From positions 46,153 to 110,152 of the forward strand of contig JAPPFH010000094.1 in NCBI GenBank assembly GCA_028875185.1: a stretch of 64,000 bases of DNA, in the 5' to 3' direction. Numbering within the stretch: the stretch's first letter is position 1; every line of letters begins with the position of its first letter. The notes beneath the pieces are model-generated. The model was not told the origin of the DNA, made no database searches, and was given only the letters and a program-made list of their open reading frames with translations. Shown here piece after piece: positions 17,057 to 21,296 of this stretch. The translations under genes were made by a program, and so were the position numbers. The stretch is from Chloroflexota bacterium (GTDB taxonomy: Bacteria; Chloroflexota; Anaerolineae; Aggregatilineales; Phototrophicaceae).

Positions 17057-17196
17057 CTCATTAACTCCTTCAAGGACAAATCTAATTGGACATCCGATAC
17101 GATATGCTTATCAAGTTTCTATAGCCGCTGCCTTTCTACTCGTGAAGGCGACTGTGCTCGGAGCGGGCGACCCGAGCCTCCGCCTTGCTGGTATGC

Positions 17197-18089
17197 CTAG
17201 CATCTGCCGCCGTAGGTCATAAACTCTATGCCTGGGCGGCCCGTGCGGGTTTCCGCGAGATTGGCTCGCACCCATTCAATCACATGAGGGGCGGCGTCGA
17301 GTTCGATAAGGACTTCCAACTCCATCGCCCGGCAGAATACTTCCTCTCTGGTCCAGGCTTCATGATCACATTGCGTTATGCCGTAGCCAGCATTAGATCG
17401 ATGAACATGGCAGGCTTCGTGGACAAGAACTGCGGGTTCGCGCGTATCCCACCCGGCGCCCCAAACCTCGTCCGCAGGCCCGTCCCAACGCATGAAAAAA
17501 GTCCTTCGGCCACTCGATATTACACCCCTTCCCCCGTGCTCCTGTCGCTGTTCGATCTTGTCCAAGCCGTTGAGCGTGTAATCGTAGCGCTGCGGCAGCC
17601 TGTTTCTAAGCACGTCGAGCATTTGCTCGTAATAGGCGACAAAGTCCGGGGCGCCCATGATGCTAATCAACCCCGGCAGCCCGCATTGGTCCGGAAATGC
17701 TTGATAGCCCGCCGCCCAATCCTGGTCGTTGTTGCATTGCCATTGATCCTGACAACAATTGTTCGTGAAAACGCTCTGCCCGGGGCGGGCAGGTTGCTTG
17801 GACGGGTGGAAGGCAGGATGCTGCGCCCTCTGGCGTCTCCGAAGACTATCCCGCCGGCGGTACGCAGAACCACACCGCCGCTGGCGGGCTGGGAAGATAC
17901 TGAGACCGACGATGCCCCGGGCGCCCCGCATTGACCGGCCCGATAAGCGTGCCAGCCACCCATCCAATCCAGGTCCGTCGTGCATTGGCGATCGACGAAA
18001 CAGCAATTGTCAATGGCGCTCGCGCTCCCCGCCACGAAAGCGCCGAAGATAATGGCAGTCGTCATTAAGACGAATGCTCTTGCCCTCAT
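17197..18089 (-). pseudogene. Secreted Cys-repeat/HEACH protein, paralog 1 (frameshifted)
   Basis: Two overlapping frames together make a protein like the paralog at 18417-19526. The upstream frame (from 18089) gives a signal peptide MRARAFVLMTTAIIF..., one IDNCCFVDRQC repeat and the linker SILPSTRPSNLPAPG. The second frame continues with a degenerate repeat (TNNCCQDQWQC), the conserved central region (DFVAYYEQMLDVLRNRLPQ) and VLVHEACHVHR, an intact HExxH motif. The join needs a -1 shift in the C-rich run at about 17778-17790, consistent with one lost base. Whether this is a real mutation, an assembly error or recoding cannot be settled here. The Shine-Dalgarno AGGAGACC is shared with paralog 2. 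No known function. Confidence 0.75.
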
Positions 18090-18144
18090 TGTCGGTCTCC
18101 TTATTGTCTGTGGGAATCATGCGCTGGCTGCGCGGAATCCCACT

Positions 18145-18294
18145 AGTTCCAAGTAAGTAATGCAACAAATAATGGACACTGTAGGGGCGATTCTGTGAAT
18201 CGCCCGATGCTGTAATCGTGAATTTTCGAACGACACACAGTGTCGCCCCTACAGCAGACTTTCATTCTTGAATTTGTACGACTTACTTGGAACT
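18145..18294. repeat. Family C MITE-like element
   Basis: A 150-bp element with perfect 14-bp terminal inverted repeats, AGTTCCAAGTAAGT (18145-18158) and ACTTACTTGGAACT (18281-18294). Inside are two short palindromes of the TAGGGGCG type, GTAGGGGCGATTCTGTGAA and GTGTCGCCCCTAC. It lies between two Cys-repeat paralogs. No clear target duplication. Confidence 0.72.
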
Positions 18295-18416
18295 GATTCT
18301 GAATCTCTGTCGTGAAAACACCTCTCGCCCTTGGCTCTTCTATTTCTGGCAGTAGGTTGGAATCCAAAGATTTGACGCATCGCGGGTGTCTGCGACCATG
18401 CCTCGCGACCCTTCAA

Positions 18417-19526
18417 TCACATGGAGCGGGCGCCGAGTTCATTCAGGACTGCCGACTCCATCTCCCGACATGAGGCTTCCACTCTGTTGTAGGCTTCCTG
18501 ATTAAAACGATAGAAACGGTTCTCGGCATCATATGCATGGACGTGGCAGGCCTCCTTCACAAGGGTCGCGGCATCGCGCGTTTCCCGCCCACCAGACCCT
18601 GGTCCGCCCCACCTTACAAAATATATCCGATCGACGATACTTACATGCGTCCCGCGCCCATCAATCCTGATCTGTTCAATCTTGTTCAGTCCGTACAACA
18701 CATAGTTATAGCGGTGCGGCAGCCTATTCCTCAGCAGAGCCAGCCTTTGCTCGTAATATGAGACGAAGTCCGGATCGCCCACAACGCTTATCAGGTGCGG
18801 TAGCGGGCAATAGACATTGGGAAGATTGGTCTGATAGAACCGAAGGCCTTCCGCCCGGTCCTGGTCGCTGTTGCATTGCCAAGTGAAATCACAGCAACTG
18901 TCAGTAGACCAGACATCCCCGAGGGCAGGCCAGGGGTAAGGCTCGGTGGTGGGCAGGATGCTGCCCCCGCCGGTATGCCCGATGACAATCCCGCTGGCCG
19001 TCCGCAAGACAACCCTGCTGCCGGGCTGGGACGACGCTACTATCTGCGCTTGCCCGGGCGCGCCGCATTGACCAGCCTGAAAAGCGTGCCAGCCACTCAT
19101 CCAATCCGAGTCGCTATGGCATTGGCGGTCGACGTAACAGCAATTGTCAACGTGAGCGGGAGCGGGGCCGGCGGGCGAGGAAGGCGCGAGCGCCGGCGGT
19201 TGCGAACTTGCGGGCGCGGACGCGCTGCAAAGACCGGCTTGATACGCGCGCCAGCCGTTCATCCAGTCCAGGTCGCTATGGCATTGGCGGTCGACGAAAC
19301 AGCAATTGTCAACTTGAGCGGGGGCGGGCCCCGTCGGTTGGGATTGGGCGGGCGCGGGCGCGCTGCACTGATTGTTCAGAAAAGCCCAATAACCATCGAC
19401 CCAGTCTTGATCGCTGTGGCAGTGGCGGTCGACGAAACAGCAATTGTCAATGCCGCTCGCGCTCCCCGCCACGAAAGCGCCGAAGATAATGGCGGTCGTC
19501 ATTAAGACGAATGCTCTTGCCCTCAT
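18417..19526 (-). CDS. Secreted Cys-repeat protein with degenerate HEACH motif, paralog 2
   Basis: 369 aa. Signal peptide 1-25 (cleavage near GSASG). It has three near-identical units at 26-54, 72-100 and 126-154 with the pattern DNCC-x5-C-x17-C (CCFVDRQCHSDLDWMNGW), joined by Pro/Ala-rich linkers, and a fourth degenerate unit at 208-240 (SCCDFTWQC). The C-terminal domain (about 250-369) contains DFVSYYEQRLALLRNRLP and KEACHVH at 324-330. The paralogs have HEACH at that place, so the first zinc-type His is Lys here. The C-terminal VEASCREMES supplies the conserved Glu/Cys that follow. Predicted exported and disulfide-bonded. I do not recognise a characterised family; a zinc peptidase ancestry is inferred only from HExxH. 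Confidence 0.82.
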   Translation of the reverse strand: MRARAFVLMTTAIIFGAFVAGSASGIDNCCFVDRHCHSDQDWVDGYWAFLNNQCSAPAPAQSQPTGPAPAQVDNCCFVDRQCHSDLDWMNGWRAYQAGLCSASAPASSQPPALAPSSPAGPAPAHVDNCCYVDRQCHSDSDWMSGWHAFQAGQCGAPGQAQIVASSQPGSRVVLRTASGIVIGHTGGGSILPTTEPYPWPALGDVWSTDSCCDFTWQCNSDQDRAEGLRFYQTNLPNVYCPLPHLISVVGDPDFVSYYEQRLALLRNRLPHRYNYVLYGLNKIEQIRIDGRGTHVSIVDRIYFVRWGGPGSGGRETRDAATLVKEACHVHAYDAENRFYRFNQEAYNRVEASCREMESAVLNELGARSM

Positions 19527-19639
19527 TGTCGGTCTCCTAATCGAACTGGAAAATCTGCGTAAGCTATATCGAAAGTGTACTTGGAGGCGTTAGTATTGCG
19601 TTAGCTTGCCGCCGTCCACAAAAGCGCCATTGTGGAGCG

Positions 19640-19825
19640 GTTATCTCGGTGATTTACCCAATGAGCCCCCATCCCCGTCGGTCTATGTCTACGTGACCCG
19701 GTCCCGCCCCTCATCTCTACGAGGAGCATCCCCAGAACGAGGCAAGGGGAGTTGACCTTGCAGTTCCGCGGGTTTTGAAGTCCCTCAATTTGGGATGCCT
19801 GCCATAGAGATGGCAGGAGGGATTT
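19640..19825. repeat. GC-rich intergenic repeat block
   Basis: Sits in the 478-base gap between paralogs 2 and 3. It contains GCCCCCATCCCCGTCGG, GGTCTATGTCTACGTGACC (also seen, with small changes, at about 27090-27122) and the hairpin CTGCCATAGAGATGGCAG. It belongs to the CCCCATC repeat class, but I see no clear terminal inverted repeat. The rest of the gap (19826-20004) holds nothing I recognise. Confidence 0.55.
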
Positions 19826-20004
19826 AGGCTGAGGGAAATTGCAATTATACCCGCGATATTCACCACTTCCGGACATTGACAGCTAAGCCGCGTAGATTGC
19901 ACGTCGATCTCTATCCAGTATTCTGTTGTGCCGTCTGATGAGACTATGGCGTCCGCAATCCCGACGGCGACGAAAGGTAGCCGAAGTGACCGCTATGCCC
20001 CCGA

Positions 20005-20952
20005 TTATAAGCTTTGCACTACTCGAAGCGTCGTGCAGAATAGCTCTGGTCTAAACCCATACCCGGCCGATTTGTCCGCACACCAACCTCTTATCAAAGC
20101 CAAATCATGTTCCCTATGCTCATCCCACCAGTTAGACGATCCACGGCTCGGGTCAAGATTCTTAAAAAATTCATAGCGAAGGGGTACGTCCGCGCCCCGG
20201 TAGTATTTGTTGCATTCCTCTTCCTCGCGTTTCGCCGTCGGAAAATGGATCCCGGCATCACGAAAATATATGTGGCAAGCCTCATGGGCCAGTACCCCAA
20301 CCGTTGTCATTTGATCGAACTCGGGGGGACCAGTCCCCCATATAGTCCAAGACAGCCAGCAAGTTTCCATGGTGACTCTTCTTTGGCGACCATTCGCGGT
20401 TGCGAGGCACCCGAGCATATCATGCGACCAATTGCCGTCGTCGCGCCTGTCAGTCCCCCAAATGCCGCCGACGGGGGTGGGAACTTCAACGATTGAGTCC
20501 ATCCCGTTTACCACGAAGTTGTACCACTCCGGCGATAGGCGCTTCAGCCAATTTAGCGACGCTATAATGTGGCGAACAAATGTATCCGAACCCTCTATCC
20601 TGGGCAAGGATCCTGAAGGTGTTGTCCCGTAAGCCGGCGCAGGCGCGGAACATTGCCCATTCCGATAAGCGTGCCAGCCGCCCATCCAGTCCAAGTCGCT
20701 ATGGCATTGGCGGTCGACATAACAGCAATTGTCAATTTGCGCGGGGGCGGGGCCCGTCGGTTGCGATACCGCGGGCGCGGGCGCGCCGCATTGATTGTTC
20801 TGAAACGCCCAATAACCATTGACCCAGTCTTGATCGCTGTGGCATTGCCGGTCGACGTAACAGCAATTGTCAATGGCGCTAACGCTCCCCGCCAGCGCCG
20901 CAGCGCAGATGAGCACCGCCGTCGACATCAATACGAATGGCGTTGCCTTCAT
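20005..20952 (-). CDS. Secreted Cys-repeat protein with HEACH (HExxH) motif, paralog 3
   Basis: 315 aa. Signal peptide 1-26 ends AGSVSA. Two DNCC-x5-C-x17-C units lie at about 27-55 and 73-101, separated by GAPAPAVSQPTGPAPAQ. The C-terminal domain (from about 115) has WLKRLSPEWYNFVVNGMDSI, which matches the RNRLP...YNYVLYGLNKI region of paralog 2, and VGVLAHEACHIYF with HEACH at 223-227, followed by REEEECNKYY. H-E-x-x-H plus a downstream Glu is what a gluzincin-type zinc peptidase would need, but no other family feature is recognised. The C-terminus is longer than in paralog 2. A promoter-like site lies upstream. Function unknown. Confidence 0.84.
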   Translation of the reverse strand: MKATPFVLMSTAVLICAAALAGSVSAIDNCCYVDRQCHSDQDWVNGYWAFQNNQCGAPAPAVSQPTGPAPAQIDNCCYVDRQCHSDLDWMGGWHAYRNGQCSAPAPAYGTTPSGSLPRIEGSDTFVRHIIASLNWLKRLSPEWYNFVVNGMDSIVEVPTPVGGIWGTDRRDDGNWSHDMLGCLATANGRQRRVTMETCWLSWTIWGTGPPEFDQMTTVGVLAHEACHIYFRDAGIHFPTAKREEEECNKYYRGADVPLRYEFFKNLDPSRGSSNWWDEHREHDLALIRGWCADKSAGYGFRPELFCTTLRVVQSL

Positions 20953-21018
20953 AGACGGTCTCCTGATTGCCGAATTTGCGAGCAGGTCGCAAATGGCGAA
21001 TAAGACATATGTTTTGCG

Positions 21019-21047
21019 ATAGTATCGCTTATGTTGGTCATCGTCAA
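21019..21047 (-). promoter_or_regulatory. Candidate sigma-70-type promoter for Cys-repeat paralog 3
   Basis: On the minus strand TTGACG (21047-21042) is followed by a 17-nt spacer and TACTAT (21024-21019), about 67 bases upstream of the ATG at 20952. The match is 5 of 6 at -35 and 4 of 6 at -10, with ideal spacing. Confidence 0.45.
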
Positions 21048-21104
21048 CAAACGCGTCACCGAGGGGCGCTTGGCGTAAATGGCGGCGGCGCCAACCCGCG
21101 CTGC

Positions 21105-21133
21105 TTGCCTCAGGTGTAGAACTTCGCTACTAT
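21105..21133 (+). promoter_or_regulatory. Candidate promoter for the 21297 sugar-importer operon
   Basis: TTGCCT, 17-nt spacer, TACTAT, giving a leader of about 157 bases. The same -10 hexamer is used in the divergent candidate at 21019-21047. The rest of the 344-base gap 20953-21296 shows nothing else I can name. Confidence 0.35.
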
Positions 21134-21296
21134 TCTGCTCAGGCGCGGGCGGCGATCTTGTGGACTAAATCGGGCTCTCGCCTGCGGTTATCTGTCGGGG
21201 ACCTGGAGGAAGGAGATAGCTTGCAGCGGGTCCTTGTCGAATCGGCAAGGCTGACACAGAGATCACCAGATTCTTAGCTTAAGAGCGAGGGCAATA

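What the first reader, a model, noticed from the sequence alone, without database searches (positions are those of the whole stretch)
17197..20952. Cluster of three secreted Cys-repeat proteins with a HEACH (HExxH) motif: possible new exported peptidase family
Three adjacent minus-strand paralogs each have a signal peptide, one to three near-identical DNCC-x5-C-x17-C units (CCFVDRQCHSDLDWMNGW) joined by Pro/Ala linkers, and a shared C-terminal domain with V-L-x-HEACH followed about 15-20 residues later by Glu and Cys. Two of the three have a complete HExxH. I know of no characterised family with this combination; exported zinc peptidase is inference. The repeats vary in number (one to three plus a degenerate unit), suggesting a modular binding domain. 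The cluster sits between two glycan operons.
Basis: partly seen in the sequence, partly recalled or inferred. Interest (0 to 1): 0.75.

Follow-up and report, generated by a model that had tools for sequence, protein, structure and literature searches.

The report
Sponge symbionts' expanding secreted zincin family
Bacteria living in marine sponges carry many fast-evolving genes for exported proteins that look like zinc protein-cutting enzymes joined to a new cysteine-rich repeat; this could be a toolkit for handling the animal host's proteins, but no activity has been tested.

Summary
P1 (20005-20952) is intact with HEACH; P2 (18417-19526) reads KEACH; P3 (17197-18089) has HEACH but is split by a frameshift near 17775. 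They belong to a large family: 12 catalytic copies in this genome, matches in 33 of 34 genomes of its genus, and 0 of 60 genomes in 21 other genera of the taxonomic family. The 78 named loci fetched lie in 26 Chloroflexota MAGs; papers or bin names tie 21 of these to marine sponges. The C-terminal domain folds confidently (pLDDT 90.8) and resembles gluzincins: HExxH on one helix, Glu on the next, two cysteines kept or lost together. The 27-residue CC repeat reaches no Pfam or NCBIfam cut-off, has no PDB match, and is nearly genus-restricted in the genomes searched. Copies sit in tandem arrays, at loci empty in some relatives, with dN/dS 4-10 times that of neighbouring genes in the pairs compared; within arrays N-terminal halves are shared while catalytic halves differ. 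Best reading: secreted zinc peptidases diversifying for life in sponges. Activity and substrate are untested. Main caution: partial, sub-threshold matches to alpha-ketoglutarate HExxH hydroxylases, which share the fold.

The parts
20005..20952 (-). P1: intact secreted protein, signal peptide + 2 CC repeats + catalytic domain with HEACH
   Evidence: modelled
20782..20874 (-). P1 CC repeat 1
   Evidence: repeat profile, (contig coordinates minus 46152)
20644..20736 (-). P1 CC repeat 2
20272..20286 (-). P1 HEACH; conserved Glu at 20221-20223, paired Cys at 20212-20214
   Evidence: sequence; columns
18417..19526 (-). P2: 3 CC repeats + degenerate repeat + catalytic domain with degenerate KEACH
19359..19451 (-). 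P2 CC repeat 1
19221..19313 (-). P2 CC repeat 2
19059..19151 (-). P2 CC repeat 3
18825..18902 (-). P2 degenerate CC repeat
   Evidence: E 8.6e-7
18543..18557 (-). P2 KEACH (first His replaced by Lys)
17667..18089 (-). P3 first reading frame: signal peptide + CC repeat
17197..18006 (-). P3 second reading frame: degenerate repeat + catalytic domain with HEACH at 17407-17421, Glu 17341-17343, Cys 17332-17334; frame changes near 17775
   Evidence: domain modelled
17922..18014 (-). P3 CC repeat
17683..17766 (-). P3 degenerate CC repeat

Best explanation
The cluster is part of a lineage-specific multigene family of Sec-exported proteins in sponge-associated Chloroflexota. Members have a signal peptide, in many cases a bacterial SH3 domain, usually one to five disulfide-type CC repeats that I take to be binding modules, and a C-terminal gluzincin-fold domain. 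Most likely intact members hold one zinc ion between the two His of HEACH and the Glu that follows most often 15-16 residues on (16 in P1, 21 in P3), with the HEACH Glu activating water to cut peptide bonds. A disulfide between HEACH's Cys and the Cys three residues after that Glu staples the active-site helix to the glutamate helix and stabilises the enzyme outside the cell. Copies multiply in tandem, turn up at different loci, share N-terminal halves and diversify their catalytic halves, so genomes carry different sets. Shown here: export-type N-termini (by eye), family, fold prediction, conserved residues, Cys linkage, copy-number variation, raised dN/dS. Inferred: zinc, hydrolysis, disulfides, binding role of repeats, substrates in the sponge matrix or its community.
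For: Alignment of 56 of the 78 catalytic domains then in hand: E, A, H of HEAxH and the downstream Glu invariant; first His and both Cys at 90% or more. 128 of 144 proteins keep HExxH plus Glu. AlphaFold2: P1 mature 83.9; P3 domain 90.8 pLDDT and pTM 0.88, HEACH inside helix 77-99 and Glu in helix 106-126. Foldseek hits of the domain: selecase first, then M61, lethal factor, PPEP-3, ERAP2, Wss1, collagenase G among others (none at E<=0.001). Viral library: best hit E 6.7e-4 (unnamed protein), with M78, M48, SprT and lethal-factor-like proteins among the weaker hits. Weak Pfam hits of members include M91 (7 of 56), SprT (5), DUF6782 (3), M78 (2). Profile match to repeat-less secreted HExxH proteins of Anaerolineae, hhalign probability 98.5, E 1.9e-15. 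Median dN/dS 0.26 in 51 pairs shows constraint. Distribution and sponge link.
Against: No biochemical evidence. No PDB fold match at E<=0.001; for whole P1 zincins are mixed with unrelated helical proteins. The highest TM-score to the domain among the 50 rows is 8s5f_A, an alpha-ketoglutarate oxygenase (0.59). One member reaches 30.8 bits (cut-off 40, E 2.6e-7) with NCBIfam mod_HExxH, over profile positions 2-74 of 177. The best E among Pfam hits of members belongs to an unrelated family (Retrotran_gag_4, 1.2e-5, 4 of 56). 16 of 144 domains lack HExxH or the Glu, P2 among them (three of the 16 only by a gap at the Glu), so part of the family cannot be classical peptidases. I identified no residue that would stabilise the transition state. 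Atom distances were not measured.
Confidence: 0.6

Rival explanations
1. Mostly non-catalytic secreted binding proteins: the zincin fold is kept as a scaffold, and the family works by adhesion to host or wall polymers through SH3 and CC repeats.
For: Degenerate sites recur: 6 HDACH, 5 HYA[CA]H, KEACH in P2 and REACR in its closest relative. The N-terminal half is the part shared within arrays. A bacterial SH3 domain precedes the repeats in 5 of the 6 proteins scanned.
Against: 128 of 144 keep all four functional residues while the domain diverges strongly elsewhere (mean column identity 22%); that is hard to explain without catalysis or at least metal binding.
Confidence: 0.2
2. Iron/alpha-ketoglutarate-dependent peptide hydroxylases of the HExxH type (NCBIfam TIGR04267), acting on peptides.
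For: 8s5f_A is among the best fold matches (prob 0.99, TM 0.59). 9 of 78 members match TIGR04267 at E<=1, best 2.6e-7; 5 of 30 scanned singly at E<=0.1. PMC12636437 (passages read) says such enzymes have a fold reminiscent of zincins and that one had been annotated as a metallopeptidase.
Against: All five matches seen singly are below the 40-bit cut-off and end at profile position 74-77 of 177; the window's own proteins show none. The proteins are exported and apparently disulfide-bonded, where alpha-ketoglutarate and Fe(II) are not supplied (general knowledge).
Confidence: 0.08
3. Secreted toxins or effectors aimed at competing bacteria or sponge cells, a polymorphic-toxin-like repertoire with exchangeable halves.
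For: Mosaic arrays with shared N-terminal and different C-terminal halves, raised dN/dS, presence/absence variation, one apparent gain by another sponge symbiont.
Against: Plain Sec-type signal. 144 of 150 sequences carry the same catalytic fold; of the other six, four are cut pieces and two carry another C-terminus. No immunity-like partner stood out beside own-genome loci, but only ORF positions and first residues were read there, so this is weak.
Confidence: 0.1

Closest known systems
Minigluzincins (selecase 4qhf/4qhi; Wss1 WLM domain)
   Same: Small gluzincin core; best PDB fold match by E-value. Wss1 is placed with minigluzincins in PMC4559962 (passages); selecase's place there is recalled
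   Different: No sequence match; this family is exported, carries a Cys pair and CC repeats
alpha-KG HExxH peptide beta-hydroxylases (TIGR04267, ChlB 8s5f)
   Same: Zincin-like fold, HExxH; sub-threshold profile match over the N-terminal part up to HExxH
   Different: Below cut-off, second half unmatched; exported, disulfide-type
M34 family: Pro-Pro endopeptidases (PPEP-1/2/3) and lethal factor
   Same: Zincin fold hits; PPEPs are secreted (recalled)
   Different: Third ligand lies much further downstream there (recalled); here mostly 15-16 residues after the second His
Elastase FP0506 of Flavobacterium psychrophilum (PMC6414381, passages read)
   Same: Exported likely gluzincin of restricted distribution, HExxH then ExxA on a glutamate helix; elastin degradation shown there
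   Different: Lipoprotein; CC repeats not mentioned in the passages; here ExxC replaces ExxA
Secreted HExxH proteins of other Anaerolineae (A6)
   Same: hhalign probability 98.5, signal-type N-termini, several copies in some genomes
   Different: No CC repeats, mostly HEVTH, Cys arranged differently, uncharacterised
Eukaryotic-like repeat proteins of sponge symbionts (ankyrin, TPR, LRR)
   Same: Numerous in sponge Chloroflexi and proposed as host interface (PMC6306507, passages read)
   Different: Different folds; the words peptidase, protease and SH3 do not occur in that paper's main text

Membership tests
Gluzincins (zincin tribe) | HExxH on an active-site helix | tested here: met
   142, 133 and 143 of 144 for H, E, H; inside helix 77-99 of the model
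Gluzincins (zincin tribe) | Third ligand Glu on the following glutamate helix | tested here: met
   Glu in 140 of 144, helix 106-126; coordination itself not measured
Gluzincins (zincin tribe) | Fold resemblance | tested here: inconclusive
   45 of 50 rows shown for the domain are zincin peptidases by title, but none at E<=0.001 in PDB (whole P1, mixed); one at 6.7e-4 in the viral library
Gluzincins (zincin tribe) | Zinc and peptidase activity | not testable with these tools
   needs biochemistry
alpha-KG HExxH hydroxylase (TIGR04267) | Score over curated cut-off (40 bits) | tested here: not met
   best 30.8 bits; own genome best 17.8
alpha-KG HExxH hydroxylase (TIGR04267) | Full-length profile match | tested here: not met
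   positions 1-77 of 177 at most in the five seen singly
M34 (PPEP/lethal factor) | Pfam/NCBIfam sequence membership | tested here: not met
   no such family among hits
SprT / M78 / M91 / DUF6782 | Pfam gathering score | tested here: inconclusive
   P1-P3 show none of them; best E in single members 0.0035-0.03, where cut-offs are not printed

The most novel reading that the evidence does not exclude
A new peptidase family, with a Cys staple between active-site and glutamate helices and a new CC-repeat domain, has become a main rapidly diversifying secreted repertoire of one sponge-symbiont genus: arrays expand, share and swap N-terminal halves and move between species, so each symbiont carries its own protease set for processing sponge matrix or fending off neighbours.
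Probability: 0.35. Interest if true: 0.8.

Novelty: new variant of a known kind. Interest (0 to 1): 0.62.

Why it matters
Chloroflexota are abundant members of sponge microbiomes (title and passages of PMC6306507), and how they deal with the host is mostly inferred from genomes; the passages read there point to ankyrins and other eukaryotic-like proteins. Here is a second, unrelated expanded family, exported and probably enzymatic, almost confined to one genus in the genomes searched. It gives a defined protein (the P1 domain, about 200 aa) to test in vitro, and a natural series of intact and degenerate paralogs. It would also add a new architecture to the gluzincins and a new Cys-rich repeat domain.

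Tried and rejected
Rejected: chance ORFs (the family recurs in 33 of 34 genus genomes). Rejected: known repeat (no PDB match; ribosome modulation factor, superantigen-like and phospholipase A2 hits are far below cut-off). Rejected: misbinning as the reason that genus g21 has the family; the contig of G249 is 92-95% identical to G371/G372 on both sides of the array. Led nowhere: viral-contig scan, 6 pattern matches but no relative; PDB sequence searches (only E>=0.14). Paper searches for the family in sponge work: none of the titles or opening abstract lines listed describes it; supplements were not searchable, and subscription papers are mostly not held. In one search the line 'P2 cat vs L022 cat' was cut out of frame and is discarded. 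In one search some adjacent pairs were one locus fetched twice and there was no control; one search replaces it. The script failed; one search replaces it. In one search, 54 pairs were computed and 3 dropped for dS outside 0.05-1.5. G146 (one partial hit, E 4.9e-4) is taken as chance.
Full report
WHAT IS IN THE WINDOW. The three minus-strand genes are real. P1 (20005-20952) has a signal peptide, two CC repeats and LAHEACH. P2 (18417-19526) has three repeats, a degenerate fourth and KEACH. P3 begins at 18089 with signal peptide and repeat, but the frame changes near 17775 and the catalytic half (with HEACH) continues in the ORF 17197-18006. P3 is therefore a pseudogene or an assembly error; I left it split. 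The four ORFs reach no Pfam or NCBIfam cut-off. Both flanks are ABC importers with SBP_bac_1 binding proteins.

A MULTIGENE FAMILY. In the own genome, a search with P2 gives 21 stretches on 8 contigs. Reading the listings together gives 12 catalytic copies: three in the window, two each on C60 and C11, one each on C118, C144, C119, C88, C8. With a profile of 56 catalytic domains (A1; 56 of 78 then in hand), 33 of 34 genomes of the genus match (G384 does not), 1 of 3 of genus g21, 1 of 1 of g19 (weakly), and 0 of the remaining 60 genomes in 21 genera of the family. Match counts in the 33 run from 2 to 48, but mix catalytic and repeat-only stretches and rest on at most 35 scored candidates per genome. 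Across the class 13 of 298 genomes match. The CC repeat alone (A5) is found in 6 of 298 class genomes: four of this genus, G249 of g21, and one partial weak hit, and in 1 of 301 genomes drawn from the phylum, the own one.

HOST. A genome-contig scan found 216 pattern stretches, 155 encoding relatives; the best 80 were kept as 78 loci, by my count of the titles in 26 MAGs, all named Chloroflexi/Chloroflexota, Anaerolineae or Anaerolineaceae. MPMG bin20 is a row of a table in PMC5649159, on the sponge Aplysina aerophoba (listing, passages). jk18x bin names occur in PMC9531527, on Ircinia sponges sampled partly in Panama (passages); I take the p16x bins as the same project. COS, RHO, APA, CAR fit the hosts Coscinoderma, Rhopaloeides, Aplysina and Carteriospongia of PMC8163846 (passages); this is inference from names. 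For the CO3638x (4 MAGs) and SB0661 (1 MAG) bins I found no paper. So a sponge origin is documented or inferred from names for 21 of 26 MAGs and open for 5. The remaining 75 relatives of that scan were not shown.

ARCHITECTURE. 391 repeats in 150 non-redundant sequences, 363 of them exactly 27 residues, NCC-x5-C-x17-C. Most sequences have two to four repeats (135 of 150). In 5 of 6 proteins scanned an SH3_3 domain precedes the repeats; the sixth (L068:7323-8621) has four repeats and a different C-terminus. P1-P3 show no SH3 hit.

CATALYTIC DOMAIN. Of the 150 sequences, 144 cover HExxH; of the other six, four are cut pieces (P3's first frame and three ends) and two, adjacent in L068, carry another C-terminus. 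P3's catalytic half is not in this set. The motif positions are H 142, E 133 (D 6, Y 5), H 143, and the downstream Glu 140 of 144. HExxH plus Glu is intact in 128. Between the second His and the Glu lie 15 residues in 51 and 16 in 23 (range 11-32). The Cys of HEACH and the Cys three after the Glu occur together in 134, neither in 8, first only in 2, second only in 0 (Fisher p 1.2e-11, which ignores relatedness). This predicts a disulfide between the two helices that carry the metal ligands, and so supports convergence of His, His and Glu without using coordinates. P2's KEACH and REACR in its closest relative L022 (69% identical) mark a degenerate lineage, while related genes beside the same flanking gene in other genomes, such as L023, L024, L026 and L027, keep HEACH.

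STRUCTURE. P1 mature: pLDDT 83.9; residues 91-240 mostly above 90 with a weaker stretch 131-160 (62-75). P3 domain alone: pLDDT 90.8, pTM 0.88; order strand, two helices, three strands, short helix, HEACH helix 77-99, Glu helix 106-126, helix 131-145. Foldseek on PDB: for P1 a zinc peptidase (3lmc) and PPEP-1 lead, mixed with unrelated helical proteins, none significant. For the domain, selecase first (E 0.023, prob 0.98), then M61, the HExxH oxygenase 8s5f, lethal factor, PPEP-3, ERAP2, Wss1, collagenase G; of 50 rows shown, 45 are zincin peptidases by title, 4 are 8s5f chains and 1 is TM1509; none at E<=0.001. Viral models: best E 6.7e-4, an unnamed protein. PMC4559962 (passages) places Wss1 with minigluzincins. 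Pfam on 56 members: weak hits, M91 in 7, SprT in 5, DUF6782 in 3, M78 in 2, beside unrelated families; the best E of all, Retrotran_gag_4 (1.2e-5, 4 members), I take as chance in the helical part.

EVIDENCE THAT CUTS THE OTHER WAY. NCBIfam on 78 members: mod_HExxH (alpha-ketoglutarate HExxH peptide beta-hydroxylase) in 9 at E<=1. Scanned singly, 5 of 30 hit at E<=0.1, the best 30.8 bits, E 2.6e-7, cut-off 40, profile 2-74 of 177. In the own genome the best is 17.8 bits. PMC12636437 (passages) stresses that not all HExxH proteins are peptidases and that such oxygenases have a fold reminiscent of zincins. I rank this low because the proteins are exported and look disulfide-bonded, but only an assay decides.

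RELATIVES WITHOUT REPEATS. Secreted HExxH proteins of other Anaerolineae (12 aligned; G157:C44 alone has four) align by profile with probability 98.5 and E 1.9e-15. In G216 (family f1) two tandem genes read HEYCH with a later Cys and no CC repeat. The repeats thus look like a later addition in this lineage (inference).

EVOLUTION. The two flanking genes were sought through the genus. They adjoin in 9 genomes. Four hold family genes between them: three here (gap 4240 bp), two in G006 (about 3.0 kb), two in G002 (about 3.4 kb), one in G011 (about 1.7 kb). Four are empty: 394 bp in G023, 444 in G388, 467 in G330, 770 in G012. G024 (1600 bp) holds an unrelated gene. Each empty gap aligns with at least one outer flank of the window's gap, G330 with both (17058-17147 and 21018-21222). 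The other genomes with one flank were not analysed for this. In G249 three tandem copies (3.3 kb) sit between genes that are 94-95% identical and about 190 bp apart in G372; G371 and G372 have no match: a gain by another sponge symbiont, or less likely two losses. dN/dS of similar family pairs: median 0.26 over 51 pairs (not independent), up to 1.10 between tandem copies. Between this genome and G011: 0.42 (P1, with a copy at a different locus) and 0.50 (P2) against 0.05-0.11 for four flanking transport genes; P1's catalytic dS 0.19 against 0.61-0.81 in the flanks suggests exchange between species. Within arrays, 40 adjacent pairs have median identity 0.74 in the N-terminal part and 0.39 in the catalytic part. 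Matched on catalytic identity 0.30-0.50, 24 adjacent pairs have 0.73 against 0.54 for 839 control pairs (p 1.2e-8; pairs not independent); identity of 0.9 or more in 21% against 0.1%. So N-terminal halves are homogenised or copied within arrays while catalytic halves differ.

VERDICT. A new, lineage-specific gluzincin-like secreted family with a new repeat domain, in sponge-associated Chloroflexota. As a kind of protein it is a variant of something known. Its expansion, mosaic evolution and restriction to what seem to be sponge symbionts are the surprising part. That it is a zinc peptidase is likely, not shown.

Noticed in passing
window 18145-18294 (between P3 and P2): About 150 bp bounded by a 21-nt inverted repeat (arms 18145-18165 and 18274-18294, 86% complementary), looking like a REP or MITE; 45 matches, nearly all partial, across the own genome (40 of 178 candidates scored) and related pieces in the G012 and G024 gaps.
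   Followed up: partly
window near 17775: Frame change splitting P3; pseudogene or assembly error not decided.
   Followed up: partly
L068:7323-8621 and L068:8689-9423 (G002): Two adjacent CC-repeat proteins with another, shared C-terminus in place of the HEACH domain, so the repeat is a movable module.
   Followed up: partly
L242 (G024:C191:8400-11300): The slot that holds P1-P3 here carries an unrelated open frame of 244 aa with runs like TAQAQIR in G024.
   Followed up: no
L088, L100, L108 (G157:C44): Four repeat-less secreted HExTH-type relatives scattered over one contig in another Anaerolineae family.
   Followed up: partly
L023:545-1378, L025:405-1283, L033:1033-2124: A subgroup with HYAxH in place of HEACH: catalytic Glu replaced by Tyr but both His kept, natural pseudoenzymes.
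   Followed up: partly
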